A DNA stretch of 64,000 bases from Deltaproteobacteria bacterium (GCA_006226595.1 SBGP01000014.1:1-64000); one strand, 5' to 3'; shown: positions 47,813 through 64,000, counted from the stretch's first letter. The notes: generated by a model not told the origin, from the letters alone. A program made the numbers and translations.

Positions 47813-50701
47813 TTACACCAGGACTTCACGCGGGCGAGCGCCATCGGCAGGGCCGATGATGCCAGCCATCTCGAGATCGTCGACAATGCGCGCGGCGCGG
47901 TTGTAGCCAATCTTGAGGTGGCGCTGGAGCATGGACGTCGAGGCCTTGCCCTCGCGCAGGACGATGTTCACCGCATCCTGGAACAGCTCGTCCCGGTCGT
48001 CCGCGTCGCCCACCGCGTTCGGGCCACCACTCGACTCGCTGATGTTGATCAGGTACTCCGGCGGCGCCTGGTGCCGCAGGAAGTCGTTGACGCGGTTCAC
48101 CTCGTCATCGCTGACGAAGGCACCGTGACAGCGCTGCAGCGTGCCCACGCCGGGCGCGAGGTAGAGCATGTCGCCGCGACCGAGCAGCTGCTCGGCACCG
48201 CCGGTGTCGAGGATGGTGCGGGAGTCGATGTTGGTACGCAGCTGGAAGCTGATACGGGTCGGCAGGTTCGCCTTGATCAGGCCCGTAACGACGTCCGCGG
48301 ACGGGCGCTGGGTCGCGACGATGAGGTGGATGCCACACGCACGCGCCTTCTGGGCGATACGCACGATGGCGGTCTCCGCCTCCTTGGCCTCCTGCTTCGA
48401 CATCATCATCAGGTCGGCGAGCTCGTCGATGACGATGACGATGTACGGCATCTTCGCCGGCGGCTTTGCGTCCTCGGGGCACGGCGCCTCCGGGTCCGCG
48501 TACTTGCGCGCCTTCGTCGGCGTCCAGTTCTGGGACTCCCGCTCGACCTTCTCGTTGAAGCCCGAGATGTTGCGCGTGCCCCAGCGAGCCAGGAGCCGGT
48601 AGCGGTCATCCATCTCGTCGCACGCCCACATCAGGGCCGAAGCCGCCTTCTTGGGCTCGGTGATGATGGGGTGCAGCAGATGCGGGATGTCCCGGTACGG
48701 GTCGAACTCGAGCATCTTCGGGTCGACGAGGAGCAGGCGCAGCTCGTCGGGGGTCTTCGTGAACAGCAGCGAGAGCAGCATGCCGTTGACGCCGACCGAC
48801 TTACCCGAGCCCGTGGTACCGCCGACGAGCAGGTGAGGCATCTTCGCGAGGTCGGCGACGACCGGCTTGCCCTCGACGTCCTTGCCGATGACCACCGGCA
48901 GCGCGCCCTTGTGGTCGCGGAACACCGGGGAGGCAAACAACTGGCGCAGGAAGATGGTCTGGCGGCGCTGACTCGGGATCTCAATGCCGACGACGCCACG
49001 ACCGGGAATCGGAGCCACGATGCGGACGCTCAGAACCTCCATGGCCATGGCCAGGTCGTCGCCGAGCTTGGAGATGCGGGCCACTCGAATGCCGGCGTCG
49101 GGCTGGAACTCGAGGATGGTAACGACCGGTCCCGGGCGAATGCCGGTAACGGTGCCGCCGATCTTGAAGGTCTCGAGCTTCTCTTCGACCACGCGCGCGA
49201 GACGCTGCAGCTCGTGGGGCTCGTAGGACGCGTCCTGCTCGGGGACGACGTCGAGCAGCTTGAGCGCCGGCAGCTTGACCTTCGCCAGGCGCGTCGCCCG
49301 ACGCACCTCACGGCCATCGTCCTTGGACTCGTCGCGGAGCAGCGGGTTGTCGTGGACAACGGCGACGCTGGGGGTGCCGTCCGCATGGGGCACGCTCGGT
49401 GCCCGGTCCGCGCGAGGCACGCTCGGCGCGGGGGTAAGGCCCGCGATGCTCGGCGGAGCGATGGACGGCGGCTCGCGGAACGGGATGACCGGGTCTGCAT
49501 CAGACACCGGCGGGGCCATCACCGATGCCGGCGTGGCCAGGCCCGCCGGAGGCGTCATCGGGTGGTTGTCACTCGGGTTCGGGCCCGAGTCCGTAGGCTC
49601 GCGCACGCGAATGATCGGGCCGGTCATCGACGGAAGCGCCGGCTCCGGCTCCGGGGTCGGATCGGCGTGCGACTCGACGGTGTGATCGGCTTCCTGGGTC
49701 TCGTCGCGCCCGTCCCGAAGGCTGAAGTCGGGGAACAGGCCAAGCACGTCCTGGGCACCGGTGCTGCCAATCGAGGCCGTGGGGTCCCACTCGACCTCGA
49801 CCACCGCGAGCGGCGCGTCCTTCACGAGGGTGCCGCCCTGCGTGTGGTCGGTCGGCGGCGGCAGGTTGGACATGTCGAAGGTGTGCGCGTCGGTTCCAGG
49901 CGAGGTCCAGTCCGGCTCGCGATCGTTCTCGGCCCGGAACAGCGAGCGCCCCATGCGCCGCAGCGCCCCCAGGGTCCGACCGCCGAGGGACTTCACTCCG
50001 CCCCCCGCGGCAACGATGGCGGCCTTGCTGGCACCCGCAGCCTGCTGGCCAGACCACACGCTGGCGTCGCGCGCCGCCCCGGCGCTCCACGACGCGGCCT
50101 GCCCGACCGACTGGCCGACCTGCAGTCCCATGCGGGCGAGCACAGCGCGAACCGGCGGCCACGCCCGCTCGGCCTGCTCGACGAGCCAGGAGGCGACGAC
50201 GCGCCACTCGATCTTGCCCAGCACGGTGATCATGAGCACGGCCGAGAAGAACAGCGCCAACGACGCGCCCACGGTGCCGACCACGCTCTCGAGCGTCCAC
50301 AGGATGGTGGCTCCGAGCGTGCCACCCGCCGGGAACGCGGAAGAGCCCGGCCACGCGCGCGAACCCATCTCCAGCGTCGCGAGCGTCGTCACGTACAGGC
50401 CGCCGGCAGCTACCCACCGCGTGGGTGCCCCGAGCGGACGTCGCGCGAGCGCGAGCACGCCCACACCCATGGGCACGACCAGCGCGTAGGCGCCGTAGCC
50501 AACGACCGTGAGCGCCACGTCGGCGATCAACGCGCCAGCGGGACCGCAGGGATTCTCCACCAGCCCGGTGCCCGGGTGCAGCCAGGTCGGGTCGGTGGGC
50601 TGAAAGCCAGCCACCGAGACAAGGGCAAACGCACCGGAAAGCACGCCGCCGAGGAGGAGCAGCTCTCTCTGCTTGTCACCGAGCAGGGAGGAAACGGACA
50701 T
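47813..50701 (-). CDS. ftsK: DNA translocase FtsK
   Basis: A 962-residue translocase. Four N-terminal membrane segments (to about residue 190), a Pro/Ser/Asp-rich linker (about 250-480), then the motor: Walker A GGTTGSGKS near residue 630, Walker B YIVIVIDELADLMM near 757, RPSADVVTGLIKANLP, and a C-terminal gamma winged helix (TSMLQRHLKIGYNRAARIVDDLE) that reads KOPS sites. It segregates chromosome termini at division. The ATG 50701 gives the family-typical short N-terminus. Confidence 0.95.
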   Translation of the reverse strand: MSVSSLLGDKQRELLLLGGVLSGAFALVSVAGFQPTDPTWLHPGTGLVENPCGPAGALIADVALTVVGYGAYALVVPMGVGVLALARRPLGAPTRWVAAGGLYVTTLATLEMGSRAWPGSSAFPAGGTLGATILWTLESVVGTVGASLALFFSAVLMITVLGKIEWRVVASWLVEQAERAWPPVRAVLARMGLQVGQSVGQAASWSAGAARDASVWSGQQAAGASKAAIVAAGGGVKSLGGRTLGALRRMGRSLFRAENDREPDWTSPGTDAHTFDMSNLPPPTDHTQGGTLVKDAPLAVVEVEWDPTASIGSTGAQDVLGLFPDFSLRDGRDETQEADHTVESHADPTPEPEPALPSMTGPIIRVREPTDSGPNPSDNHPMTPPAGLATPASVMAPPVSDADPVIPFREPPSIAPPSIAGLTPAPSVPRADRAPSVPHADGTPSVAVVHDNPLLRDESKDDGREVRRATRLAKVKLPALKLLDVVPEQDASYEPHELQRLARVVEEKLETFKIGGTVTGIRPGPVVTILEFQPDAGIRVARISKLGDDLAMAMEVLSVRIVAPIPGRGVVGIEIPSQRRQTIFLRQLFASPVFRDHKGALPVVIGKDVEGKPVVADLAKMPHLLVGGTTGSGKSVGVNGMLLSLLFTKTPDELRLLLVDPKMLEFDPYRDIPHLLHPIITEPKKAASALMWACDEMDDRYRLLARWGTRNISGFNEKVERESQNWTPTKARKYADPEAPCPEDAKPPAKMPYIVIVIDELADLMMMSKQEAKEAETAIVRIAQKARACGIHLIVATQRPSADVVTGLIKANLPTRISFQLRTNIDSRTILDTGGAEQLLGRGDMLYLAPGVGTLQRCHGAFVSDDEVNRVNDFLRHQAPPEYLINISESSGGPNAVGDADDRDELFQDAVNIVLREGKASTSMLQRHLKIGYNRAARIVDDLEMAGIIGPADGARPREVLV

Positions 50702-50721
50702 GAGGGGCCTCTCGTCCGCGG

Positions 50722-50745
50722 AGTGTAGCACCCCTTGACGCGTCA
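50722..50745 (-). promoter_or_regulatory. Candidate ftsK promoter element with palindrome
   Basis: On the minus strand an extended -10 (TGCTACACT, hexamer at 50722-50727) lies 21 bases before the ftsK ATG. Immediately upstream is a perfect 10-base palindrome, TGACGCGTCA (50736-50745), in the -24 to -33 range, which could be an operator. No good -35 box. Confidence 0.35.
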
Positions 50746-50852
50746 TGGCCAACCCTCAGCTATTACTTAAACAACAGCCACGATCCGCGCGGACACGTCC
50801 TCAGCTCGCAACCCGCTCGCGAGCGCACAAATCGGGACCTCACGCAGACACG

Positions 50853-50986: not shown

Positions 50987-52210
50987 CTAGTAGGTGAAGG
51001 TCGCCAGCCAGTGGATGTTGACGTCGTTGTACCGGACGAGGGAGTCGGTCGACCCACGCTGCGTGTACCAGACGCCAAGCGTCGTCGACGCCCAGTCCTG
51101 GAGGGCAACGCTGCCATCCAGCTTGAGGCGGAGCAGCGAGTCACTGCGCAGGCTGCCGCCCTTGTAGCCCTCGAACCGGATCATCGCCTCGGCATCGGAG
51201 CTCAGGCGCGAGCCGTACTTGCCGTGGTGCTTCACGTACAGGTGGTTGTACGTCATGTAGTTGGTGAACCAGCTGTCATCGAAGTCCTTCTTGTACCCGA
51301 TGGACAGCTTCTGGGTCGACGACATGTCGTACTGGGCCTGCGCGGCCACGAGCAGGCCCTCGAGCCCGCCGAGGTCGGTGTCGTCGTCCTTGTAGGACGC
51401 GAGGCCGTAGCCGAGCTCCACGGTGCTCGAGATGCGCTCGGTGACCCGCCCCCGAAGACCCGCACGCAGCTTGAAGTGCGTCGAGTTCGGAATGGCCACG
51501 GTCAGCGCGCCGCCCTCCTGGTCGAAGCGCGGGCGAGTGTTCTCTTCCCACGAATACACGATCAGGTCGGTGTCAAGCACGATGGACGTGCGCGGCAGGA
51601 ACTTCCACTCCGCGTCGAGGCCGGGATTCAGGCCCTGACGCGTGTTGTAGTCACGACCCGTCTGGTTGAACAGCGCTCCTTCCGGCACCCGGAAGTCCGT
51701 GTACAGGTGCGTGAACCCGGGGGCGATCTGCAGTGCCTGCCCGAAGCGGATCTTGACGCGGGCGCCAGCCTCGTTGCGCAGCTGAGTCGCGAACGGGTCC
51801 TCGGCAAGGCCGCTGTCGTTCGTGTTGTTCCGAAGCGCCGCGTACTCGCGGAGCTCGATCCCCAGCGCGCGGTTGCGGAACAGGTCGAGGCTGCCACCGA
51901 GGTTGAAGTCGTTCATCCGGTCGAGCGAGCTCGCCTGCGACTGGATGTACTTGCGGATCTCCCACTCGCCACCGAAGGTAGCTGCAACCTCGGGACCGTC
52001 GAGCGCGAGCTCGAGGCCGGGTGCAACCCGAAGAGCGGTACCCGCGATGGCTCGCGTGTCGCGCTGGAAGGCGTTGGTGCGATGCTCGATGCCGAGGTCG
52101 AGGGTCGGCGTGATCACCGCCTCGCCGAGGCGAATGTGATCACCCGGCTCCGCCGCCGCAATCGTCGTAAAAGAGCATCCGACGGCGACGACCAACAGTC
52201 GTGACGTCAT
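50987..52210 (-). CDS. Large outer-membrane beta-barrel protein (BBP2_2-like)
   Basis: A 407-residue exported protein (signal LLVVAVGCSFTTIAAA). Regular amphipathic strands run through the chain: ITPTLDLGIEHRTNAF, LRVAPGLELALDG, VKIRFGQALQIAPGFTHLY, TSIVLDTDLIVYSW, HFKLRAGLRGRV, QKLSIGYKKDF, RLKLDGSVALQDW. It closes HWLATFTY with a terminal Tyr. The pattern recalls BBP2_2-type barrels with long poorly conserved strands. An AT-rich -10-like TATTAT lies at 52275-52280. It follows a periplasmic gene and the TonB-like gene on the same strand and might be their outer-membrane partner. Confidence 0.78.
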   Translation of the reverse strand: MTSRLLVVAVGCSFTTIAAAEPGDHIRLGEAVITPTLDLGIEHRTNAFQRDTRAIAGTALRVAPGLELALDGPEVAATFGGEWEIRKYIQSQASSLDRMNDFNLGGSLDLFRNRALGIELREYAALRNNTNDSGLAEDPFATQLRNEAGARVKIRFGQALQIAPGFTHLYTDFRVPEGALFNQTGRDYNTRQGLNPGLDAEWKFLPRTSIVLDTDLIVYSWEENTRPRFDQEGGALTVAIPNSTHFKLRAGLRGRVTERISSTVELGYGLASYKDDDTDLGGLEGLLVAAQAQYDMSSTQKLSIGYKKDFDDSWFTNYMTYNHLYVKHHGKYGSRLSSDAEAMIRFEGYKGGSLRSDSLLRLKLDGSVALQDWASTTLGVWYTQRGSTDSLVRYNDVNIHWLATFTY

Positions 52211-52297
52211 CCAGCCTGTGGGGGTCGAGGGGCGCAAAGGTCTCCCAGCGCAGTCGCACCGCGCAGCGCGGTCGATAATACACTCGCGTGCGTCAGT

Positions 52298-52837
52298 CTA
52301 CTGGTAGGGGCTCGCCGCCGGCGGATCGAAGCCGAGATCCAGAGGGTCGAGCTCGAACCCGTCCAAGTCCTCGGAGCCCTCAAGAAGCTCGCTGGTCCAA
52401 TCGACCTGCGTGCTGCCATCGGTCACCGTGCCGTCGTCGGTACACTGCTGCGCCAGAGCGAGCAGCTCACGGCCCTTGCCGCGAGCGACGACGACGCGTC
52501 GGAAGGTGTGGTCGGCCTGGGCCGAAGAGGACTGCAGCTCGCCAGCGAGCTGACCCGCGCCATCCTCGACAGAGCCGAGAAGCACGCGGAGACCCTGGAG
52601 CTGACGCGTGATGCACTCGAGGCGCTCGACGTCGGTCGACGTCCGTCGCGCTTCTTCGAGAAGCGTCGCCACCTCTTCGACCGCAGACTGCAGTTCGACC
52701 GCGGCCGACTCCGCGTACTCGATCTTCTCGGCGTCGCTGGTCGAAGCCGCGCGCTCGAGGTCACCCGAGATTCCACCTTCCTGGGCGATGGCCGGAGCGA
52801 CCGCCAGAAGGACGAGCATCGAGATGGTGCGGATCAT
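52298..52837 (-). CDS. Periplasmic coiled-coil protein, unknown function
   Basis: A 179-residue exported protein (signal MIRTISMLVLLAVAPAIA) with GGAG before the ATG 52837. Residues about 25-135 form long helices with heptad character (AESAAVELQSAVEEVATLLEEARRTSTDVERLE, LRVLLGSVEDGAGQLAGELQ). There are two Cys and an acidic, aromatic-poor tail (DLDGFELDPLDLGFDPP). It sits between the TonB-like gene and the barrel gene. No family recognised. Confidence 0.65.
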   Translation of the reverse strand: MIRTISMLVLLAVAPAIAQEGGISGDLERAASTSDAEKIEYAESAAVELQSAVEEVATLLEEARRTSTDVERLECITRQLQGLRVLLGSVEDGAGQLAGELQSSSAQADHTFRRVVVARGKGRELLALAQQCTDDGTVTDGSTQVDWTSELLEGSEDLDGFELDPLDLGFDPPAASPYQ

Positions 52838-52926: not shown

Positions 52927-54279
52927 TCACTTCGGGCTGAACACGAACGGCGCCGCGACCAACTCGCCGTCGGTATCGATCCCGTCGAACTTCCACCGGG
53001 CGATCTTGCCCTTGATGCAGGTCGCGAACTCGCTGTCACCCGTGGAGTTGGCGAAGATCGAGATGCCGGTCGGGCGACCCTGACGGATGGCCCACTCGAC
53101 CTCGACACGGCCAGAGAGCGACGGGTTCTGACGCAGACGCTGCTCGTAGCAGTAGGTCAGGGCGCCCTGGTTGCGACCGATGATGGCCTTGATCTTGTCG
53201 CCATCCGGAAGGTCGGACGCGTCGACGTTGCCGCCGGTCACCGACCCCTTGATCTCGGTCTTCACCGAGCCGATCTCGGAGGTGCCGCCGCCAGCCTGGG
53301 CCACCGCGCCGATGTCGGCGTCCTCGGTGGTGCCGGTGCCGCCACGGATGCCGCCGTTCTCGCCGGTCGCCATCTCGACACCACCGACGCCCTGGAGCGC
53401 CGCGTCGAGATCGCCGAGGCCCTCGTCACCCTCGGCGAACGCGTCCTCGGCCGTGCCGACACCGTGCTCGCTGCGGGTGGTGAGCATCTTGAGGAGAAGG
53501 CTCTTTTCCTTGAGCGCCTCGATCTGCTTCTGCTCGTCGGCCGCCTGCTCTTCCTTCGTCTGCGGCTCCTTCTTCACCTCGGGCTCGGGCTCGGGCTCGG
53601 CCTTGGTCTCGGTGGACTCGGCGTTCTCGTCGATCGCCTCCTCCGTTTCCTCGGTCTCCTCGACCTCCACATCCGGCGGATCGGGTGCGAGGATGATCTT
53701 GGTGAAGCGATCCGGCATCTCTTCGAGCGTGTACTCCGGCGGATCGGAGTTCCACACGACGAGGAGCAGGATCACCGCTAGCGCGCACCAGACACCGAGG
53801 AACCCGAGGAAGATCGGATCGTCGTCCTCGAGCAGCCGCGGGCGAAAGTCCATCGCCTTGAGCGGCTGGACGGCCTGCACCGGCGGAGGCGGTACGAACT
53901 GGAAGAGGATCGTGATGTCGCCGAGCGCGATCTTGCCGCGATCCTGGTCGGTGAGACCGAGACGCCAGCTCCCACCCTGGTTCGCGACCGACGGATCGGC
54001 GCGAAGCTTCGCGAGAGTCACGGCGGCGCCGCCGGACGAGATCTTGCCCTTCATGCCCTCGGTGAAGTTCAGGACGTAGTCGCCCTTTCGATTCACGAAG
54101 AGCGGGTACTCCGCGCGCGGAAGACCGGTCTTGGGAAAGACGAAGGTCGCCTTGGCGCTCTCGCCGATCGTCACCGACTCCCCAGAGGGAATCAGACGCT
54201 CCTGGACGAGCTTGCCGCTCTGGATCACACCGATCCGGAGCACCTTCTTCTTGTCATTCTTGGTGGCCTGGGCTGCCAT
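52927..54279 (-). CDS. FHA-like/TonB-like transducer (AgmX/PglI C-terminal domain, GltG/GltJ-like)
   Basis: A 450-residue inner-membrane protein. Cytoplasmic N-terminus (about 12-130) resembles an FHA domain (SGESVTIGESAKATFVFPK). One membrane helix (about 156-176). Then an acidic and Pro/Glu/Lys linker (EVEETEETEE, EPEPEPEVKKEP). The C-terminal domain is of the AgmX/PglI type (about 360-450): IIGRNQGALTYCYEQRLRQNPSLSGRVEVEWAI, ATCIKGKIARWKF, with two Cys. TonB-like domains of this kind couple a proton channel to outer-membrane partners; M. xanthus GltG and GltJ have this layout. It is a separate transcript, 313 bases below the ExbD genes. Confidence 0.85.
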   Translation of the reverse strand: MAAQATKNDKKKVLRIGVIQSGKLVQERLIPSGESVTIGESAKATFVFPKTGLPRAEYPLFVNRKGDYVLNFTEGMKGKISSGGAAVTLAKLRADPSVANQGGSWRLGLTDQDRGKIALGDITILFQFVPPPPVQAVQPLKAMDFRPRLLEDDDPIFLGFLGVWCALAVILLLVVWNSDPPEYTLEEMPDRFTKIILAPDPPDVEVEETEETEEAIDENAESTETKAEPEPEPEVKKEPQTKEEQAADEQKQIEALKEKSLLLKMLTTRSEHGVGTAEDAFAEGDEGLGDLDAALQGVGGVEMATGENGGIRGGTGTTEDADIGAVAQAGGGTSEIGSVKTEIKGSVTGGNVDASDLPDGDKIKAIIGRNQGALTYCYEQRLRQNPSLSGRVEVEWAIRQGRPTGISIFANSTGDSEFATCIKGKIARWKFDGIDTDGELVAAPFVFSPK

Positions 54280-54592
54280 CGATCAGGACTCCGATGCCTG
54301 GTTCCCGGACGTCTTGAGACGCCTGATGCCTCTGACCATGTTCGGCCGAAAAAGTTCGCGAGATGTGAGAGAGGCGTCAGTCATGAATTGCAGGCACTGC
54401 GGGGAAGGGGTGAGCCCGCGACAGGGCCGAGAATAGACGTGCGGGTGCAGGTCCGCAAGCCTCCCCTCGACCTCCGCTGAGGATTGCATCCTAGCGCGGG
54501 TGAGAGCACAGCGCGACGGTGGCCGCATAAAGAAAAAATCCGCCACAGCGGGGCTGCGGCGGATCGAACGGTAGGTCCCGGAGCGAGTGCCC
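54280..54592. other. Intergenic region between exbD-like and TonB-like genes
   Basis: 313 bases with no credible gene. It contains the terminator of the ExbB/ExbD unit at 54533-54564 and, presumably, the promoter of the TonB-like gene nearer 54300-54400, though I see no clear hexamers. Confidence 0.55.
54533..54564 (-). terminator. Rho-independent terminator of the ExbB/ExbD unit
   Basis: Minus strand: ATCCGCCGCAGC, CCC loop, GCTGTGGCGGAT with one mismatch-type G-U/T pair, then TTTTTT. Strong. 28 bases after the last ExbD stop. Confidence 0.9.
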
Positions 54593-55129
54593 TTACAGGC
54601 CCTCGCCACCCTGAATGACGACGAACTTGAACTCGCCGAACTTGGCCTGGCCCGCGGTGTACATGACCTCGCGAATGACGGAGAACGGCAGGCGACGGTC
54701 ACACTGGAGCAGGATCTGCCCCTTGAACTCGCCGTCCTCGGCTCCGGTCTTCGCGGACAGCTCCTCGGCGTACTCGGCCTTCTCGAGGAGGCGGTCATAC
54801 AGCTTCGAGATCATCTGTCCCTTCTTCTCGTCGTCGGGCACGCGCACGACCTCTTCGCCGGTCTCCTCGTCCGGCACACGCTCGAGGCCGAGCACCGGGA
54901 CGGAGTCCACGAGGATGCCAGAGCGCGTGACGATGAGGTTGACCGCGAGACGCGGCGGCTTCTTCGCCGAGGAGATCGGAACTTCCAGATCGTCCGAGGG
55001 CTTCACCGAGATGTCCTCGGTGGAGTAGCTCTTCAGGAGGAAGACCAGGATGATCGTCATCATGTCCATCATGGACGTGATCGACAGCTCACCACTGACC
55101 GGCGGGCGACGCCCCTTCTTCTTACCCAT
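54593..55129 (-). CDS. ExbD/TolR-family proton-channel subunit (Asp present)
   Basis: A 178-residue protein with one N-terminal membrane helix. SITSMMDMMTIILVFLLKSY places Asp22 where ExbD/TolR carry the essential proton-binding Asp. The periplasmic domain (PPRLAVNLIVTRSGILVDSVPVL, ILLQCDRRLPFSVIREVMYTAGQAKFGEFKFVVIQ) is the usual TolR fold with an acidic insertion. Last gene before the terminator; 18 bases after the first ExbD. Confidence 0.88.
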   Translation of the reverse strand: MGKKKGRRPPVSGELSITSMMDMMTIILVFLLKSYSTEDISVKPSDDLEVPISSAKKPPRLAVNLIVTRSGILVDSVPVLGLERVPDEETGEEVVRVPDDEKKGQMISKLYDRLLEKAEYAEELSAKTGAEDGEFKGQILLQCDRRLPFSVIREVMYTAGQAKFGEFKFVVIQGGEGL

Positions 55130-55147
55130 CTCAGGTACTCCGATGAA

Positions 55148-55687
55148 TCAGGCGCCGCCGGCAATGACGACGAACGGGAACAGGAGACCCTCGTCACCCT
55201 TGCGGGCCGGGTCGTTACGCGACGCATCCATGGTCAGGACCAGGACCTCGTAGGGGATCTTCGGCTCGGGCACGAGGATGACGTTCTCTTCCTCGTCGTT
55301 GCCCGGCAGCGCCTTGATCTCGACGAGCATCCGGTTCAGCTCCTCGGTGTTGTAGGCGTCGGGAGTCGGGCAGCCCTGCACGGTGCAGGGGATGGTCGGA
55401 CCTGCGTCCTCGCCCTCTTCCTCGGTGGCGCCGACGATGTCGTCGATGCCGTTGCCCTTGACCGTGAAGCCCTCGTCCGTGATCAGAATCGAGAGGCTGA
55501 GCGGCGGATCCTCGTCTTCCTGCTGGTCAGCCGGCTGCGGCGGACCGATGGCGGGCAGCGTGGAGTCGATGACCGCCAGACTGATGAACTGCGCAGCCAT
55601 CAGCAGGAACGGGATGAGGATCGTAACCAGGTTCATGATGGGAACCAGGTTGAGCTCCTCAGCCTCGCCAAGTCGCTTCTTTGCCAT
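55148..55687 (-). CDS. ExbD/TolR-family protein with Asn at the Asp position
   Basis: A 179-residue paralogue of the next gene. The membrane helix LNLVPIMNLVTILIPFLLMAAQF has Asn19 where the family has the conserved Asp. The periplasmic part includes a 25-residue acidic insertion and a pair CTVQGC (probable disulfide), then VPEPKIPYEVLVLTMDASR. It may be a structural partner while the other ExbD carries protons. 87 bases after ExbB. Confidence 0.86.
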   Translation of the reverse strand: MAKKRLGEAEELNLVPIMNLVTILIPFLLMAAQFISLAVIDSTLPAIGPPQPADQQEDEDPPLSLSILITDEGFTVKGNGIDDIVGATEEEGEDAGPTIPCTVQGCPTPDAYNTEELNRMLVEIKALPGNDEEENVILVPEPKIPYEVLVLTMDASRNDPARKGDEGLLFPFVVIAGGA

Positions 55688-55774
55688 GGTAGGGGCTCCA
55701 GTGACCGGTGGAGTGGCCAGGGAAAAGGCGCGCGGGCAAGACCCGCAGCGCCATCACGGGGTAGCAGTCGAGGC

Positions 55775-56434
55775 TTAGGCCTCGGCCGCCACCTCCTCCT
55801 TCAGGCCGCCACGGCGACGAGCGGTGAGCAGGTTCACCGTCTTGAGGCCGTACTGGTCGACGTCGTCGAGGATCTTGTTGGTGCGCGCCAGGATGATGGC
55901 GTGGAGGATCAGCGTCGGGATAGCGACGATGAGACCACCGGCCGTGGTGTACATGGCGACGGAGATACCAGCAGCCAGCAGGGTCTGCTTCATCTCGGCG
56001 GACGCGTGGGCCACAGCCTCGAACGCCTGAATCAGACCCATGATGGTTCCGAGGAGGCCGAGGAGGGTCGCGACGTTCGCGAGCATGGAGAGGTAGCCGC
56101 TGCGCTTGTTGAGGATCGGGCCGACCTCGAGGGTCGCCTCGTCGATCGCGTTCTCGATCTCCTTCTCGGTGCGGTTGGCGCGGGTCAGACCGGCCTTCAC
56201 AACCTTCGGGAGCGCCGCGTGGGGCTCGGCGTTGCAGAGCTTGATCGCGCGGTCGATGTTGTTGGCCATGATCAGCTTCTGGACCTGGGCCATGAACGCC
56301 GTCGCGTTGATGTTCGCGCGGAAGAAGATGTAGAACAGCCGCTCGAACGCGATCGCCATCGCGAACACGGCCGCGATGAGGATGAAGTACATGAACGGAC
56401 CGCCGTCCTGGAACATGGTGACAGGGTTGACCAT
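55775..56434 (-). CDS. MotA/TolQ/ExbB-family proton channel protein
   Basis: A 219-residue inner-membrane protein with three membrane helices (about 12-34, 115-140, 150-175). ANVATLLGLLGTIMGLIQAFEAV and LLAAGISVAMYTTAGGLIVAIPTL are ExbB/TolQ signatures. With the two ExbD proteins it would form the 5:2-type motor driven by proton flow. Closest in context to M. xanthus AglR. GGAGG precedes the ATG. Begins a new unit 244 bases below the 78-residue gene. Confidence 0.92.
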   Translation of the reverse strand: MVNPVTMFQDGGPFMYFILIAAVFAMAIAFERLFYIFFRANINATAFMAQVQKLIMANNIDRAIKLCNAEPHAALPKVVKAGLTRANRTEKEIENAIDEATLEVGPILNKRSGYLSMLANVATLLGLLGTIMGLIQAFEAVAHASAEMKQTLLAAGISVAMYTTAGGLIVAIPTLILHAIILARTNKILDDVDQYGLKTVNLLTARRRGGLKEEVAAEA

Positions 56435-56547
56435 CTCGTGAGCCTCCGCTCGGTGTGGATCTCCCCCAACCCGGACACGTCCGCTGGGGGCTGATTGCAG
56501 GACCCGGGGACTGTAAACGACCGGGCCGGTTTTGGTGAGGGGGGGTT

Positions 56548-56576
56548 CGTCAGGAGCCTGTCAGACGTTCCTGACG
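56548..56576. promoter_or_regulatory. Inverted repeat upstream of the ExbB gene
   Basis: CGTCAGGA (56548-56555) and TCCTGACG (56569-56576) are perfect inverted arms around 13 bases that include a further TGTCAG. It lies about 115 bases upstream of the ExbB start, in the promoter region. Without a T run it is more likely a regulator site than a terminator, but it could also attenuate read-through from the TPR genes. Confidence 0.4.
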
Positions 56577-56678
56577 GGCGCATCGTCCAGGAAGATGGAC
56601 GACATCCGCGTCCGGCGGTTCGTCAAGCAACCGCCAAGAGAGGAATAGAACAAGCACGCACTCCGAGGTCCGACGATC

Positions 56679-56915
56679 TCAGAATGGTGCGTTCTCGACG
56701 CTCTCGAGGATGCGAGGCACGAAGCTCTCGCGCAGCTCGAGGCGATAGTTCTTGTGCAGGTTCTCGCGCGAGATGAACACGGCCACCTCCGGCTTCTGAA
56801 CCTCGACCTCGATCTCGGTCGTCTCGAAGGTGAAGCGGCGCGCAGCGTCGGCAGAAGATGCGAGCACGCCCAGGGCGAGGATCGCGGCGCAGAATACGAA
56901 TCCGTGGCGGATCAC
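56679..56915 (-). CDS. Small exported protein of the TPR/ExbB cluster
   Basis: A 78-residue protein: signal peptide (VFCAAILALGVLASSADA) then a mature chain of about 54 residues (FETTEIEVEVQKPEVAVFISRENL, LELRESFVPRILESVENAPF). Its ATG overlaps the stop of the TPR lipoprotein gene (ATGA), so the two are coupled. The compact strand-then-helix pattern and position suggest a conserved small periplasmic part of the machine. No named family known to me; GltF of M. xanthus is a possible counterpart but I cannot show it. Confidence 0.75.
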   Translation of the reverse strand: MIRHGFVFCAAILALGVLASSADAARRFTFETTEIEVEVQKPEVAVFISRENLHKNYRLELRESFVPRILESVENAPF

Positions 56916-58270
56916 TGATCACCTCCCTCGGGCGCGGGCTCTCCCCCACCCTCTTCGGGCGCCGGATCACCGCCACCCTCGGGCGCGGGCTCTCCCCCAC
57001 CCTCTTCGTCGAGCAGCTTCTGGCGCTCGGCCGCTTCCTGCTCGGCCTTCTTGCGGGCCTCTTCGCGCTCGCGGCGACGATCGGCGCGCTTCTTTTCCTT
57101 GTCGAGCGCATCGATGTACTCGGCGGCGCGACCAGACTGATCACCACCCATGTCGATGTACGTCTGGAGGGCCTTCATGCCCTTCGCGTACTCCTTGCGG
57201 TGATCGCCCTCGAGGATGCCGAGGTTGAAGTACGGCGCCGGGTTCTCCGGCTCGAGCTTCATGGCCGCCTCGTACTCCGCCTGGGCCTTGTCGAACTGAC
57301 CGGTGCCGCGGTAGGCGATGCCGAGGTTGAGCACGACCCAGAAGTTCCGGGCGTCGAGTTCCTTCGCCTTCTCGAGCAACTTCACCGCGTCACCGTAGTT
57401 CCGATCCTCCATGTAGAGGTCGGAGAGGTGCACGAGACCCGGGAGGTACTTGTCGTCGAGCTCGACGGCCTTGGTCAGGTGGAACCGCGCGTTCGGCAGG
57501 TCGTCCTGCATGCGCAGCACGCGGCCGAGGTTCGCGTGGATCAGCGCGCTGTCGTCAGCGCCAGCCACCGTGTTCCGCGCCTTCTCGTACACGAAGCGAG
57601 CGAGCGCGTAGTCACCCTTCTCGATGTAGGCGAGACCCAGGCTGTTGTACAGCGACACGCTCTGGGTGTTCACCTGGAGCGCGGCCTTCGCGGCGCGGAT
57701 CGCCTCGTCGATCTCACCGGCCTGGACCAGGCCACCGACGAGGGCCTCGCGAAGGAGGATGTCGTCGGGTGACTTCTCGACCGCCGCCTTGTACTGGGCG
57801 AGCGCGAGATCGGGACGACCGGCCTGCTCCTGAAGTCGACCCATGTACAGCTGGACCTGGCTCAGGCTGCGGTCGAGGTCGCCCGCGGACATGTAGCTAC
57901 TGCGCGCGCCGGCAAGATCGCCGAGCTGATGCTTGGCGACGCCCATGTTCAGGTGGGCCACCGCGATGCTCGGATCGTTGGTGATCACCTGGGACAGGAT
58001 CGTCTTCGCACCATTCGGGTCGTGGCTGGCCTTCGAGGGATCGAGCAGGCGCACCGCCTCGTTGATCCGCTCGTACTGGGTGCCATCCAGCTTCGCGACG
58101 GTTCCGGACGTCGGCGCCGCCGGCGTCTCGGGGTTGGCGTTGGTCGCGCTACCGCCATCATCCGACGGCTGCTCGGTCGTGCTGTTGCCGCCGGCAGCGC
58201 TCTCGACGCCGCCACCCTTGGGGCCGCAGGCGGTGAGTCCGATCAGGGAGAGGAGGACGAGGGTACGCAT
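56912..58270 (-). CDS. TPR outer-membrane lipoprotein (GltE/AglT-like)
   Basis: A 452-residue lipoprotein (LLSLIGLTAC, Cys15). After a low-complexity linker (about 20-60) come about eight tetratricopeptide repeats (about 90-395), for example VAHLNMGVAKHQLGDLAGARSSYM, SLYNSLGLAYIEKGDYALARFVYEKA and FWVVLNLGIAYRGTGQFDKAQAEYEAAMKLEP. A charged coiled coil follows and a tail of GGGEPAPE repeats. M. xanthus GltE (AglT) is a TPR lipoprotein of similar size in an equivalent place. It overlaps both neighbours by 1-4 bases. Confidence 0.85.
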   Translation of the reverse strand: MRTLVLLSLIGLTACGPKGGGVESAAGGNSTTEQPSDDGGSATNANPETPAAPTSGTVAKLDGTQYERINEAVRLLDPSKASHDPNGAKTILSQVITNDPSIAVAHLNMGVAKHQLGDLAGARSSYMSAGDLDRSLSQVQLYMGRLQEQAGRPDLALAQYKAAVEKSPDDILLREALVGGLVQAGEIDEAIRAAKAALQVNTQSVSLYNSLGLAYIEKGDYALARFVYEKARNTVAGADDSALIHANLGRVLRMQDDLPNARFHLTKAVELDDKYLPGLVHLSDLYMEDRNYGDAVKLLEKAKELDARNFWVVLNLGIAYRGTGQFDKAQAEYEAAMKLEPENPAPYFNLGILEGDHRKEYAKGMKALQTYIDMGGDQSGRAAEYIDALDKEKKRADRRREREEARKKAEQEAAERQKLLDEEGGGEPAPEGGGDPAPEEGGGEPAPEGGDQ

Positions 58271-61200
58271 CACTTCTTCTCCGGAGCCGGGGGCTCGGCG
58301 CGAACCGGCAGGATGGGCGGCACGTCCGCAGCCCAGGGCTCGCCGCGAATCTCGAGCTTGAGCGCCGGGTAGTCCTTCGGCTCGAGCTCGTTCAGCGCGT
58401 CGTAGGCCTTGCCGACCCACTCGCTGTACTGCTTCTGGTCGGTCGCGGTCTTGATGATGCGCTCGAAGCGAGCGATCGCCTTGGCCTGCGCGGCGTCGAA
58501 CTGCGGGTAGCCCTCGGCGTAGATGACCTCCATGAACAGGTCACACTCCGCCTCGGAGTAGCCGCGGGGGCACTCGATGCTGTAGCCGAGGTCGGCGAGG
58601 TACAGGTACCCGGAGCCGGCGAGGTACAGGGCAGCCGCCGAGTACTCGAAGTCCTGGTAGCGGCTGACGAGGTCGAGCGCCTTCTTCTCGAACTCGACCA
58701 CCTCAGCCGGCTTGATCTGGAAGATCAGCTCGGCGTCCTTGGCCTCGTCGCGAATCAGCTTGTCCTTGGTGAGGACCTCGAACTCCTCGCTCAGCAGCGC
58801 GAAGGCACGCTCGGCCGCGTAGCGACGACCCATGCCGACCGGCACGCCCTCGGACACGAGGCGCGCGTAGTCCGCCACGATCTCGTCCTTGAGCTGCTTG
58901 GCCTTGGTCACGCGCCCGGCCCGCAGATGCATCTCCGACAGCCAGTACTTGGAGTACAGCGCGTGGTCGGGGTTCGAGAATCCGTACTCGGCGAGGTAGC
59001 CCTCGTAGAACCGGCGAGCATCACGATCGCCGACCTCTTCCCACTGCTTGCCAGCCTGGAAGTAGACCTCTTCGCGGTCGTCCTGGTCCGGGTAGTCCTT
59101 CGCGTAGGCCATGTAGCCCTGCGCGGCACCCTTGTGGTCGCCGAGGCCGATCTTGAGGAACGACTGGTTGTAGACCGCGTTCGGCGTGTCCTGGTAGTCC
59201 GGGAAGCGAGAGATCAGGCGGCCGTAGTAGTCGATCGCCTTCTCGAGCTCGAAGGTGGCCTCGTAGTTCGCCGCGATGCGGAAGTAGAGCTGCTTGGAGC
59301 GCTCGTCATCCGGGTAGCGGTTCACGTAGTCCTCGAACAGCTCGTTGGCGCGCGCCGCGTCACCGGCCTTCTCGGAGTTGTTGGCCGCGTTGTACAGCGC
59401 GAGCGGGACGTACTCGGACTCGGGGAACTCGTTGGTGAACGCGTAGAACGCGTCGGCGGCCTCGGCGTACTCCTTGGCATCCGTGAACGCGAGGGCCTGC
59501 TTGAATGCCGTGCCTTCGAGGATGTTGCGGAACTCGGACTGGCGCGCCTTCTGGAGCTCCTCGTCCGGGCCGAGCGGGATGCGCACGAACTCGCTCGTGA
59601 GGCGACGGACCTCGGCGAGATCGCCCTCGTTCTGCGCTGCCGTGACCATGAGGCCGGCGGCGTACGAGCCTTCGAGCGTCTCGTTGTAGTCGCGAACGAG
59701 CGACATCAGGCGCGGGCGCGCCTCTTCGTAGCGGTTGTGGAAGAACAGGACCTGCGCGATGAGGTACTGAATCTTGTGATGGCGCTCGCCGATGATCTCG
59801 TTGAAGTCCGGCAGGCCCTCGATCGGCTCGGCCGTGAAGTCGTGCGAGAGGACCGCGTCCGCCGAGTCGATGAAGCGAACGTGGTCGTCCGAGAGAGAGT
59901 GCACGGCGATGTTGCCGCTCGGCGCCTCGTACGTCTTCTCGACCTTGTTCTTCTGCGGGACCACCCAAAGCGGCGCCTTGAGGTTGAGCGCCATCTCGCG
60001 CTGGGCGGGATCGAGCTGCTCCTCGGGAAGGGCCGGGGGCGCGTTGTTCTGCTGGAGCAGAGCGAGGGCGGCATCCATCGAGAAGTAGGTCGCCGCATCG
60101 CCGTAGTCGTGCGCGCGCTGCGTGCGAATGAGGTCCGCGTTCTCGGACAGCGCTTCCTCGTGGAAGCCGCCACGGTACAGCGTGTCCGCCAGGTACCACT
60201 GGACCTGGTAGTAGTCGTCGCTGATCGGGAACTTGTCCATGTACTCGCGGAACTTGGCGGCCGCGAGCGCGTAGTCGTCCGGGTTGCCGGTCTGGTCCGC
60301 ATTGAGGCGGTACTCGATCGCCACGTCCTGGAGCGACGCCTCGATGTACGAGCGAGCGGTCGCGAGCGCACGCGGGTTGTTCCGGTTCGCGAGCCACCAC
60401 TCCGAGCCGTCGGAGTAGCGCTCGGTGAGTTCGATACGTGCCGCGGCGGAAGCTGCAAGGTCCGGCGGAACCGGCTGCAGCCACAGCTTGACGATGCGCA
60501 TCTGCCAGTCCGGGTTCTCCGGGTGGTCGACCCAGCGCGGATCGTCCTGGAGGAAGCGGAACACGCTGATCGCCTCGTCCCAGCGGGCCTGCTGGGTGAG
60601 GACCTCACCTAGCTGCACGTAGACGTCGCGCTCGTAGTCGGTCGGCGTCGCGCGCGAGAAGTAGCCCTTGGCGACCTCGACCGGGTCGGTGTCGGTCTTG
60701 TCCGCGATGTCCGACATCGAGATCGCCATGTACTTCACGGCGTCCGGGGCGTACTCGGACTCACGACCACTCTCGCGGAGCGAGACCTCCGAGTCGGTGA
60801 GGACCTGCGCGAACATGTCGAGCGCGCGGTCGTACTCGGCGGGCTGGGCCGCTTGCTTGTAGTAGGCCCAGGCGAGCTGGTACAGCGAGGCGATGTAGTA
60901 CTCGCCCTCCGCACCCTTGTCGAAGACGGCCTTGTAGTGCGCGACCGCCGGCTCGAGCTCGTTCCGATCGAAGTGGTAGTTGCCGATGAACAGGTGGCCC
61001 GGGTCGGACAGCGCGCTCTCGGGGTGGTTCTCGACCAGCTTGTTGAAGGCCACCAGGGCAGCGTCTTCGTCGAACTGCGCAGCGTTCGGCTCGTTGTGAC
61101 ACCAGCCGAGCATGTAGTACACGCCATCCATGAACTGGTAGCGCTGGTCGGCCGGGCGGTCCTTGTTGTCGGCGATGATCCGCTCGTAGAGCGAGATCGA

Positions 61201-61746
61201 GCGACCGAAGTCGACCTTGGGCTCGGGCGGGAGCTCGTCGAGTCGATCGAAGCCGAGCTCCGCAGCAAGGCGCTCGTACTCGACGCCGTCGGAGAGCCAC
61301 TTCTCACGCGCGAGCTCGAACTCCATCTCGGCGAGACGGAAGCGAACGTGGTCGTGGTAGTCGCTGTCGGCGTACTTCTTGAGGTACGCCTCCATGCGGG
61401 CGATGGCCTGCTCGCGCTGGTCGGTCTCGGCCGTCTCGAGCGTCGAGATGACGCCGTCGTAGCTCGCGGAGAGCTTGTCCCGCTCGATCGCTTCCTTGCG
61501 GTCGACGAAGGCGCGGGTGTCGTCCTCGAGCTCCTTCATGCGAAGCGCAAAGCGCTCCTGGACCTGGCGGAACGCGAGGGCCTCGGAGGCGTTGTAGCCC
61601 TCGACCCGCTCGACATTCCCGCTCTGAGCCGGCGCCGCCGGCTCGTCGTCCTGGGCCACCGCGGACAGCGGCAGCGTGAGCGCCAGCGCCAGGACCACGG
61701 TGCTCTTGAGGGAGCGAAGGCCAGCCGTGTACATGCTGCCCCGCAT
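58270..61746 (-). CDS. Large exported TPR protein (GltD-like)
   Basis: An 1158-residue periplasmic protein (signal STVVLALALTLPLSAVAQ). It is made almost wholly of TPR-like helical hairpins: VAHYKAVFDKGAEGEYYIASLYQLAWAYYKQ, DVYVQLGEVLTQQARWDEAISVFRFLQ, PLALYNAANNSEKAGDAARANELFEDYVNRYPDD, VYFQAGKQWEEVGDRDARRFYEGYLAEYG. M. xanthus GltD is a similarly long TPR protein. Translationally coupled to the gene above and below (TGATG overlaps). Confidence 0.83.
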   Translation of the reverse strand: MRGSMYTAGLRSLKSTVVLALALTLPLSAVAQDDEPAAPAQSGNVERVEGYNASEALAFRQVQERFALRMKELEDDTRAFVDRKEAIERDKLSASYDGVISTLETAETDQREQAIARMEAYLKKYADSDYHDHVRFRLAEMEFELAREKWLSDGVEYERLAAELGFDRLDELPPEPKVDFGRSISLYERIIADNKDRPADQRYQFMDGVYYMLGWCHNEPNAAQFDEDAALVAFNKLVENHPESALSDPGHLFIGNYHFDRNELEPAVAHYKAVFDKGAEGEYYIASLYQLAWAYYKQAAQPAEYDRALDMFAQVLTDSEVSLRESGRESEYAPDAVKYMAISMSDIADKTDTDPVEVAKGYFSRATPTDYERDVYVQLGEVLTQQARWDEAISVFRFLQDDPRWVDHPENPDWQMRIVKLWLQPVPPDLAASAAARIELTERYSDGSEWWLANRNNPRALATARSYIEASLQDVAIEYRLNADQTGNPDDYALAAAKFREYMDKFPISDDYYQVQWYLADTLYRGGFHEEALSENADLIRTQRAHDYGDAATYFSMDAALALLQQNNAPPALPEEQLDPAQREMALNLKAPLWVVPQKNKVEKTYEAPSGNIAVHSLSDDHVRFIDSADAVLSHDFTAEPIEGLPDFNEIIGERHHKIQYLIAQVLFFHNRYEEARPRLMSLVRDYNETLEGSYAAGLMVTAAQNEGDLAEVRRLTSEFVRIPLGPDEELQKARQSEFRNILEGTAFKQALAFTDAKEYAEAADAFYAFTNEFPESEYVPLALYNAANNSEKAGDAARANELFEDYVNRYPDDERSKQLYFRIAANYEATFELEKAIDYYGRLISRFPDYQDTPNAVYNQSFLKIGLGDHKGAAQGYMAYAKDYPDQDDREEVYFQAGKQWEEVGDRDARRFYEGYLAEYGFSNPDHALYSKYWLSEMHLRAGRVTKAKQLKDEIVADYARLVSEGVPVGMGRRYAAERAFALLSEEFEVLTKDKLIRDEAKDAELIFQIKPAEVVEFEKKALDLVSRYQDFEYSAAALYLAGSGYLYLADLGYSIECPRGYSEAECDLFMEVIYAEGYPQFDAAQAKAIARFERIIKTATDQKQYSEWVGKAYDALNELEPKDYPALKLEIRGEPWAADVPPILPVRAEPPAPEKK

Positions 61747-64000
61747 CAGTTCCTCTCCTCGCCGAGCTTGGAGCGAATCAGCGAGAACCGCGACTCGAGC
61801 TCTTCGATCAGCTCATTGCGTTCTTCAGCCAGCCGCTCACGCCGCTCGGCCGTCTGCAGCTTCTCGGCCCAGAAGACGTCGACGATGCCGACATCCGCGC
61901 CGAGCAACGCCTCGGAGAAGAAGTCCTCCAGGCGCGCGAAGCCCTCACGCGTCAGGTCCACGGCGACGCTCTCGACCTCGGTCTTGGTCGCCGCGATGTC
62001 CGCCTTCTGCTTCGCGACCTGACCGATCTCGAAGTCGAAGCGCTCGCGGATCTTCGCCATCTCGTCCGACTGCGCGGTGGCCACGCGGTCGAGGATCTCG
62101 GCGTAGACCTCGGTGTTGTGCTCGAGCGTGGTGTACATACCGTCGAAGCGCGCGATCATCAGCGCGGCCTGGCCGGTGTCCCCCGCGGGGCGGTAGGGCT
62201 CGTAGCTCTTGCGCAGCTCCTGGAGCTCGCGGGAGAGCTCGATGGCCCAGCCACCGCTACTCGACCGCGCGATGGAGCCGCCGCCGCCCGGGTTTCCGAG
62301 ATCACCCTCGAGCGGGCCACCGGCTTCGGTGAGTGCCTCGCCCTTCTCGGTGAGCTCGGCTTCGACCTCTTCGAGCTCGAGCGCCGCCTCGGCCTGAAGC
62401 TCGGGAGCCACCGACGGGTTGGTGCTCTTGTCGATCAGCGACTCGGCCCGCGCCTGGAGCGCCTTGACCTCGGTGGTCAGCTCGATGCGCACGCGCTCTT
62501 CCGCCGTCCACGACTTGGGCTTGGGCTGCTCCTCCCCTTCGGAGGTGCTGCCGCCGGCGCCACCCTGGGCCGCGAGCCGTTCGCCAATGCTCTGACGCTG
62601 GATCACGAGTGGCTCGATCTCCTCGGCCATGCGCTTGTTGGGCGAGTTCTTGATCAGCCACTCCTCTTCGAGGAACAGCACGTCGAGCTCGGTCTGCAGC
62701 ACCATGTACTGGTTCGTGGACGCCTGGTAGCCGATCTCGCCGAAGCCACCGACGGACTCGCTGCGAGTGAGCGCTTCCTCGATCTCGGCGATCAGCTTGT
62801 CGGAGCCGGCGATGACCTCTTCCTGGCGGACGAGGTCCTCGTACACGGAGAGCGAGCGCGCGAGCTCGTCGTCGGCGAGCATCATCGCGACCGCGTAGGC
62901 CGGCAGCGCACCATCGGCGGAGAGCTCGCCGCGGGAGATCTCGAGCACCCGCTGGAAGTAGCGCTCGGGGTCGTCGAGGGTCGACGCGAGATCGGCGAAG
63001 CGATCGCGCACGGGCGTGTAGTCGGAGATCACGTCTTCGTAGGACACCAGAGCAGGCTCGTACTGTTCCTGCTGCAGGTGAAGGTGCCCCTCGAGGAGCT
63101 TGAGACGCGCCGTGTACTCGTGCTCCGGGAAGCCGAGGAGGAAGACCTCGACGGAACGCAGGGCCTCGGCCCAGCGCTCCTGCTTCACGTGCACCCAGAC
63201 CTGCTCGTAGAGCTTGTCGGCGAGGTACTCGCTGTCACCGCCGATGCGGATGTAGGCCGAGCTGGCGTCGTCGTAGCGACCGAGCTCGTAGTTCAGTCGA
63301 CCGACGGCGAGCAGCGCCAGGTCCTGGACCTTGCGGTCGTCGACCGTCTGCGGCGGCAGGTCGGAGACCTCGACGAAGTAGGGCAGCGCCGTCTCGTAGC
63401 TCTCCTTGGCGACGTCGATGGTACCGAGGAAGTAGCGACCCCGGCCGTACCACTCGGACTCGGCGGGGATGCGCGCGAACTGCTCGCGCGCCTTCTCGAG
63501 CTCGCCCTGGGTGTAGAACGCCTTGGCGACGGTGTAGGAGACCAGCGGGCTCGGCGCGACCTTGCCGGAGAGGATCTCGGACCGGTAGACCTCGTAGAAC
63601 AGCTCGGTCTGGCCGGTGACGGCGTAGAGCTCGAGCAGGCGGCGAACCGCGTCCTCGCGGAACGGGTGGTTCCGGTTGGTCGCGATGGCCTGGTACTGCC
63701 CTTCGGCGGTGCTCGCGTTGCCCATGCGGAACAGCGACTCGGCCAGGTACCACTCGCTGTCGGAGTGCAGGCCAGCGTCGGTGAGCACACCCGAGGCGAC
63801 AAGCGAGAAGAACGCCTCGCCCGCGCGCTCGTAGTCACCGAGCATGAAGTCGTAGACGGCGTCCTGGAAGCGCAGGGTCGCCATCTCGCGAGAGAGGATG
63901 CCACGGCCGGGCGCGATGCTCGCGTCCAGCGTACGGGCCTGGCTGTCGAGGGTATCGACGGCCTTTGTGAGGTCGTTCACGCGCTGCTTGAACGAGTCCG
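61746..64000 (-). CDS. Large TPR/coiled-coil protein, 5' end outside window (GltC-like)
   Basis: At least 750 residues; the frame is open to the right edge, so the start and any signal peptide lie outside. The visible N-terminal half is TPR-like (FMLGDYERAGEAFFSLVASG, AFYTQGELEKAREQFARIP, LEGHLHLQQEQYEPALVSYEDV). The C-terminal half is coiled coil with a Gly/Ser break (GNPGGGGSIARSSSGGWA) and a long acidic helix at the end. A GTG at 63980 is possible but the open upstream codons (DSFKQR) continue the same coiled-coil character. First visible gene of the coupled TPR run. Confidence 0.82.
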   Translation of the reverse strand, partial: DSFKQRVNDLTKAVDTLDSQARTLDASIAPGRGILSREMATLRFQDAVYDFMLGDYERAGEAFFSLVASGVLTDAGLHSDSEWYLAESLFRMGNASTAEGQYQAIATNRNHPFREDAVRRLLELYAVTGQTELFYEVYRSEILSGKVAPSPLVSYTVAKAFYTQGELEKAREQFARIPAESEWYGRGRYFLGTIDVAKESYETALPYFVEVSDLPPQTVDDRKVQDLALLAVGRLNYELGRYDDASSAYIRIGGDSEYLADKLYEQVWVHVKQERWAEALRSVEVFLLGFPEHEYTARLKLLEGHLHLQQEQYEPALVSYEDVISDYTPVRDRFADLASTLDDPERYFQRVLEISRGELSADGALPAYAVAMMLADDELARSLSVYEDLVRQEEVIAGSDKLIAEIEEALTRSESVGGFGEIGYQASTNQYMVLQTELDVLFLEEEWLIKNSPNKRMAEEIEPLVIQRQSIGERLAAQGGAGGSTSEGEEQPKPKSWTAEERVRIELTTEVKALQARAESLIDKSTNPSVAPELQAEAALELEEVEAELTEKGEALTEAGGPLEGDLGNPGGGGSIARSSSGGWAIELSRELQELRKSYEPYRPAGDTGQAALMIARFDGMYTTLEHNTEVYAEILDRVATAQSDEMAKIRERFDFEIGQVAKQKADIAATKTEVESVAVDLTREGFARLEDFFSEALLGADVGIVDVFWAEKLQTAERRERLAEERNELIEELESRFSLIRSKLGEERN

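What the first reader, a model, noticed from the sequence alone, without database searches (positions are those of the whole stretch)
52927..64000. Core of a Glt/Agl-type energised trans-envelope machine
Two large TPR proteins, a TPR lipoprotein and a 78-residue exported protein are translationally coupled, followed by ExbB, two ExbD, and an FHA-TM-TonB-like transducer. This matches the part list of the ancestral Glt core (GltC, D, E, G/J plus AglRQS) known from Myxococcus, where it drives gliding by moving complexes along the envelope. The Myxococcus literature describes related core clusters in non-gliding bacteria with unknown roles. Here it lacks the visible cytoplasmic and focal-adhesion accessory genes, so its job may be transport, surface secretion or envelope positioning.
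Basis: partly seen in the sequence, partly recalled or inferred. Interest (0 to 1): 0.75.

Follow-up and report, generated by a model that had tools for sequence, protein, structure and literature searches.

The report
Second Glt-like envelope motor, half-charged axle
This is a second, separately conserved relative of the Myxococcus gliding machine, a proton-driven motor that reaches from the inner membrane to the outer membrane, and its motor differs from the known ones in that one of its two axle proteins has lost the proton-binding residue in 68 genomes examined.

Summary
The minus-strand block encodes GltC, GltD, GltE and GltF relatives, ExbB, two ExbDs and an FHA-TM-TonB-like GltG. The order is conserved in relatives, and the marker protein occurs in 137 of 189 sampled genomes of the phylum. 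It is not the organism's canonical Glt set. That set lies on another contig (GltB-A-C-D-E-F-G, no motor beside it), and the same two-machine pattern holds in 12 relatives. The Glt-type core is known (Luciano 2011), and paralogous clusters of unknown function exist in M. xanthus. New here: the motor sits inside the block; three parts have no secure counterpart in the canonical set; and in 68 genomes ExbD1 carries Asn, Ser, Gly or Ala where ExbD/TolR/MotB proteins carry the essential membrane Asp, while ExbD2 keeps Asp in all 68. M. xanthus AglQ and AglS are both reported to keep it. The most likely reading is a self-motorised trans-envelope machine with an obligate ExbD1-ExbD2 heterodimer. Cargo is unknown.

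The parts
61746..64000 (-). GltC-like exported TPR protein, 787 aa (continues to contig base 64109)
   Evidence: NCBIfam GltC 4.5e-13; profile match to the canonical GltC set, hhalign probability 99.8
58270..61746 (-). GltD-like exported TPR protein, 1158 aa; shares one base with GltC
   Evidence: TPR matches; 37 of 38 relatives; hhalign to canonical GltD probability 100 over 976 columns
56912..58270 (-). GltE-like TPR lipoprotein, 452 aa, lipobox LTAC
   Evidence: NCBIfam GltE 3.8e-42
56679..56915 (-). GltF/CglF-like small exported protein, 78 aa
   Evidence: CglF 0.007 alone; 12 of 19 aligned members match CglF at E<=0.1, the best being the canonical member; hhalign to canonical GltF probability 97 over 49 columns
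55775..56434 (-). ExbB/AglR-like motor subunit, 219 aa
   Evidence: PF01618 7e-25; Val where E. coli ExbB has the TM3 Glu
55148..55687 (-). ExbD1, 179 aa, Asn (VPIMN) in place of the essential membrane Asp
   Evidence: PF02472 1.4e-8; residue survey
54593..55129 (-). ExbD2, 178 aa, membrane Asp kept (SMMDMMT)
   Evidence: PF02472 1e-8; residue survey
52927..54279 (-). GltG-like transducer, 450 aa: FHA fold, TM helix, disordered stretch, TonB-like C-terminal domain
   Evidence: NCBIfam GltG 2.9e-41 and myxo_SS_tail 71 bits; structure model and PDB matches
52298..52837 (-). P232 family: exported protein, 179 aa from the ATG, conserved C-terminal SPF/SPY motif; specific to this machine
   Evidence: alignment A5; 13 of 20 phylum or class level loci
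50987..52237 (-). Outer-membrane beta-barrel (BBP2_2 family), likely OM partner
   Evidence: PF10082 2e-7; 11 of 18 homologues match; 17 of 20 relatives and 13 of 20 phylum or class level loci
47813..50752 (-). FtsK translocase, flanking gene, conserved neighbour mainly within the order; probably not a part

Best explanation
A second, self-motorised relative of the Glt/Nfs machines. SHOWN by sequence: the part list, conserved gene order, paralogy to a canonical Glt set elsewhere in the genome, and loss of the acidic residue in ExbD1 but not in ExbD2. INFERRED: ExbB and an ExbD1-ExbD2 heterodimer form a 5:2-type proton motor with one proton-binding site per axle. Its motion is passed by GltG (FHA domain in the cytoplasm, TonB-like domain in the periplasm) to the TPR scaffold GltC/GltD, the lipoprotein GltE, GltF and the exported proteins P229 and P232, and so to the BBP2-type outer-membrane barrel. 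The output is most likely lateral movement or energisation of an outer-membrane or surface cargo, as Nfs moves the spore-coat polymer, and not cell gliding. The cargo is not identified.
For: Profile matches to GltC, GltE, GltG and CglF. Block order conserved in relatives and across the phylum; marker P229 in 137 of 189 genomes, 116 of 153 high-quality ones. Canonical Glt set on C63, same two-machine pattern in 12 relatives. GltC, D, E, F and G have profile-level counterparts in the canonical set, while P229, P232 and the barrel have none that is secure. FHA and TonB-like folds in GltG. ExbD1 non-acidic (N 49, S 14, G 3, A 2) and ExbD2 Asp in 68 of 68 genomes, 49 of them with the motor 6.0-11.5 kb from P229 on one contig. 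Controls with Asp in both ExbDs: this genome's C36 triad and motors outside the block in other genomes. The literature says AglQ and AglS both carry the Asp (PMC9389320).
Against: No experiment, expression or localisation data. In some genomes the block has no block-type motor beside it (L064, L108, L110, L111, L115, L116, L123, L124), and in G010 and G004 the motor at the block keeps Asp in both ExbDs, so the half-charged pair is not indispensable to the machine. No ExbB-ExbD complex was modelled, so heterodimer formation is inferred. No M. xanthus sequence could be reached for direct comparison with M2, G4 or G5.
Confidence: 0.68

Rival explanations
1. It is the cell's gliding machine itself.
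For: Homologous core with its own motor; the canonical set on C63 has no AglRQS-like triad beside it.
Against: Canonical Glt set with GltA/B-like barrels on C63, a separate AglRQS-like triad on C36 with Asp in both ExbDs. In M. xanthus the extra clusters G3, G4, G5 and the M2 motor are dispensable for motility (PMC3169522).
Confidence: 0.12
2. It works as a TonB/Tol-like energiser: GltG opens or energises the BBP2-type barrel for import or export of a substrate.
For: TonB-like C-terminal fold, barrel conserved at the end of the block.
Against: No plug domain or TonB-dependent receptor profile in the barrel; the TPR scaffold C, D, E is not part of Ton or Tol systems (general knowledge).
Confidence: 0.22
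3. The block's motor is simply the AglRQS of this organism and drives the C63 Glt complex.
For: In M. xanthus one AglRQS drives two Glt-type complexes (PMC3858216); C63 lacks an AglRQS-like motor beside it.
Against: The C36 triad has AglRQS-like lengths and both Asp, and the motor stays embedded between GltF and GltG of this block in many genomes.
Confidence: 0.15
4. ExbD1 is a non-motor subunit (regulator or wall anchor) and ExbD2 forms an ordinary two-Asp homodimer.
For: Asp loss is what one expects of a subunit released from proton transfer; the replacement varies (N, S, G, A).
Against: ExbD1 keeps a well conserved membrane helix with the ExbD-type proline and the small residue at the Asp position, and is retained beside ExbD2 in all 68 genomes.
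Confidence: 0.3

Closest known systems
Glt/Agl core complex of Luciano et al. 2011 (PMC3169522)
   Same: All seven Group B parts clustered: AglR, Q, S, GltC, D, E, G.
   Different: Adds a GltF relative, P229, P232 and a BBP2-type barrel; ExbD1 lacks the membrane Asp; sits in the same genome as a full canonical Glt set.
M. xanthus Nfs/AglRQS spore-coat machine (PMC3858216)
   Same: Paralogous Glt-type envelope complex driven by an AglRQS-type motor; precedent for non-gliding surface transport.
   Different: nfs has no motor of its own and its genes are homologues of G1 and G2 genes except GltI, J and K; AglQ and AglS are reported to both keep the Asp.
M. xanthus clusters G4, G5 and motor M2 (MXAN_1922, MXAN_1327, MXAN_3003-5), function unknown
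   Same: Extra Glt-type clusters and a spare Agl-type motor dispensable for motility; plausible orthologues.
   Different: Orthology not tested: no M. xanthus sequence was reachable.
E. coli Ton (ExbBD-TonB) and Tol (TolQRA) motors
   Same: ExbB/ExbD-type proton motor with a TonB-like transducer.
   Different: One ExbD type with Asp there; here two ExbD types, one without Asp; TPR scaffold and FHA domain added.

Membership tests
Glt/Agl core complex | GltC, GltD, GltE, GltG and AglR, Q, S homologues clustered in one region | tested here: met
Glt/Agl core complex | Scores above the NCBIfam equivalog cut-offs of the M. xanthus gliding proteins | tested here: not met
   GltG 142 vs 650, GltE 145 vs 225, GltC 49 vs 450 bits: related, not the equivalog; the canonical C63 copies also fall below
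Gliding (A-motility) machine of M. xanthus | GltA and GltB barrels, GltH, I, J and K in or near the set | tested here: not met
   No GltA/B-type (OMP_myx_plus) match in the block's proteins; such barrels are on C63. GltH, I and K were not searched for genome-wide
Gliding (A-motility) machine of M. xanthus | Drives gliding together with MglA and AglZ | not testable with these tools
   An MglB-like Roadblock protein exists on C30, 77 bits; MglA not searched
AglRQS motor | ExbB plus two ExbDs | tested here: met
AglRQS motor | Conserved membrane Asp in both AglQ and AglS (PMC9389320) | tested here: not met
   ExbD1 non-acidic in 68 genomes
Tol-Pal | TolB and Pal with TolQRA, ExbB above the TolQ cut-off | tested here: not met
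   TolQ 59 bits vs 221; no TolB or Pal match among the block proteins scanned
TonB-dependent uptake | Plugged TonB-dependent receptor in the cluster | tested here: not met
   Barrel is BBP2_2, no plug domain match

The most novel reading that the evidence does not exclude
A phylum-wide class of ExbBD-type motors that works with a heterodimeric axle carrying a single proton-binding Asp, so that each axle is charged on one side only. This would mean an obligate ExbD1-ExbD2 pair and possibly half the usual number of power strokes per turn, and it would bear on the open question whether the two ExbDs of AglRQS pair with each other.
Probability: 0.5. Interest if true: 0.8.

Novelty: new variant of a known kind. 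Interest (0 to 1): 0.62.

Why it matters
The Glt-type core has stood since 2011 as a complex of unknown function in non-gliding bacteria. Here most sampled genomes of the phylum carry a second version with a defined part list, including the outer-membrane barrel through which it could act. Its motor is a natural Asp-to-Asn experiment on one axle subunit: in MotB the same change is used to mimic the protonated state (PMC9389320). That review states that it is not known whether AglQ and AglS form heterodimers or homodimers; a motor in which one partner cannot bind the proton makes that question directly testable.

Tried and rejected
Naming the organism: the one genome-contig scan returned a single named relative, MAG Proteobacteria bacterium GY13CH_bin.7; the phylum is taken as Myxococcota by inference only. 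Finding Myxococcaceae for direct comparison with G4, G5 and M2: two further order-level searches gave no genome over the GltG equivalog cut-off. Identifying P229 by fold: the coiled coil plus beta-sandwich model gives only middling matches to common beta-sandwiches (best Z 8.6), so no identity is claimed; no Pfam family reaches significance. Link to cell division or wall synthesis through flanking dacB and ftsK: the neighbours are kept in the window's order and partly in its class, not in other classes, so shared descent explains them. Loss of the ExbB TM3 glutamate is noted but rests on an E. coli ExbB sequence recalled from memory as the yardstick; this genome's other ExbBs mostly keep Glu there.

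Full report
OBSERVATION. The minus strand of the window from 64000 down to 52927 carries the genes described: GltC-like (61746 to contig base 64109), GltD-like (58270-61746), GltE-like lipoprotein (56912-58270), a 78-aa exported protein (56679-56915), ExbB (55775-56434), two ExbDs (55148-55687 and 54593-55129) and a GltG-like transducer (52927-54279). GltC/GltD and GltD/GltE share one base each and GltE and the 78-aa frame overlap by four, read from the coordinates. Curated profiles match GltE (3.8e-42), GltG (2.9e-41), GltC (4.5e-13) and, weakly, CglF, the curated family that the 89-aa GltF appears to belong to (0.007), all below the equivalog cut-offs; ExbB and both ExbDs pass Pfam cut-offs. 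Profile-profile comparison ties the 78-aa family to the canonical GltF of relatives (probability 97 over 49 columns).

BOUNDARIES. Comparison with 20 relatives shows that the conserved unit is larger. Upstream, overlapping GltC by four bases, is an exported 229-aa protein (P229, contig 64106-64795, outside the window), and before it dacB. Downstream are an exported protein (P232 family, 52298-52837) and an outer-membrane beta-barrel (50987-52237, Pfam BBP2_2; 11 of 18 homologues match that family), then ftsK. In 20 further genomes of the class or phylum outside the window's order, P229, GltC and GltD lie together in all or nearly all, with GltG in 17 and P232 and the barrel in 13; three of these contigs are cut short, and some blocks have no block-type motor. 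P229 itself is found in 137 of 189 sampled genomes, 116 of 153 of high quality. The dacB and ftsK neighbours are kept mainly in the window's order and partly in its class.

TWO MACHINES PER GENOME. The same genome has a canonical Glt set on contig C63: two OMP_myx_plus barrels in the GltB/GltA positions, GltC (238 bits), GltD, GltE, a second GltG-type protein, CglF/GltF (62 bits) and full-length GltG (365 bits). Twelve relatives show the same order of this set, as far as their contigs reach, and none of the stretches read there contains an ExbB or ExbD of the block type. GltC, GltD, GltE, GltF and GltG of the block have profile counterparts in the canonical set, but P229, P232 and the barrel have no secure one. 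A further triad on C36 (ExbB 246 aa, ExbD 151 aa, and an ExbD fused to a myxo_SS_tail domain) resembles AglRQS in the size of the first two, and an MglB-like Roadblock protein is on C30. The window block is therefore a paralogous second machine, not the gliding set. Luciano et al. described the core in non-gliding bacteria and extra clusters G4, G5 and M2 of unknown function in M. xanthus (PMC3169522); Wartel et al. found that the spare motor M2 is not needed for sporulation and that its AglR homologue does not bind GltG or NfsG (PMC3858216). The block may be their counterpart; this was not tested because no M. xanthus genome was reached.

THE MOTOR. In ExbD, TolR and MotB a membrane Asp binds the proton. 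In the block's ExbD1 the position is Asn (VPIMNLV), while ExbD2 has Asp (SMMDMMT). In 68 genomes with a block-type motor ExbD1 has Asn in 49, Ser in 14, Gly in 3 and Ala in 2, never an acid, and ExbD2 has Asp in all 68; in 49 of them the motor lies on the same contig, 6.0-11.5 kb from P229. How the set was chosen: block-type motors were taken by ExbB similarity. At similar scores three motors have Asp in both ExbDs: L062 and L066, which lie at the block in G010 and G004, and L220, which is not beside P229; these are not among the 68. Motors that lie outside the block in other genomes (G192, G166, G101, G050, G202, G047, and others) and this genome's C36 triad carry Asp in both. On an ExbB tree the non-acidic state needs about 4 changes against 11 for shuffled labels, so it is an inherited trait, though several long branches make the exact number unsure. 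A review states that AglQ and AglS of M. xanthus both have the Asp and that homo- or heterodimers are not known (PMC9389320). Searches of the paper library found no report of an Asp-less ExbD partner; that is absence from one library, not proof.

MECHANISM. Shown: parts, order, paralogy, residue pattern. Inferred: ExbB with one ExbD1 and one ExbD2 forms the proton motor; GltG couples it to the periplasmic TPR scaffold and through it to the outer-membrane barrel; the output is movement or energisation of a surface or outer-membrane cargo. The Nfs machine, which carries a polymer around the spore surface (PMC3858216), is the nearest working model. The cargo, and whether the barrel is a channel or an anchor, cannot be told from sequence.

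VERDICT. The kind is known. The distinct phylum-wide machine with its own barrel and the half-charged ExbD pair make it a new variant.

Noticed in passing
G000:C63, L029:1103-15456 (minus strand): Canonical Glt-type cluster of the same genome, conserved in order in 12 relatives, without an AglRQS-like motor beside it.
   Followed up: yes
G000:C36, L034:3059-5124 (minus strand): AglRQS-like triad in which the second ExbD is fused to a GltG-type myxo_SS_tail domain; both ExbDs keep the Asp.
   Followed up: partly
L062 (G010) and L066 (G004): Blocks whose motor has Asp in both ExbDs; in G010 the motor genes are also inverted, so the motor seems to have been swapped.
   Followed up: partly
L064 (G005), L108, L110, L111, L115, L116, L123, L124: Blocks with no block-type motor beside them; which motor drives them is open.
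   Followed up: partly
G000:C44, L033:3179-5669: Two ExbB frames in tandem followed by one ExbD.
   Followed up: no
window 55775-56434: Block-type ExbB has Val, Thr, Met, Ile or Leu where E. coli ExbB (recalled sequence) has the TM3 glutamate.
   Followed up: partly
G000 genome-wide: Eighteen matches to the myxo_SS_tail (GltG/GltJ C-terminal) domain, eleven over the cut-off, more than the Glt sets found here account for.
   Followed up: no
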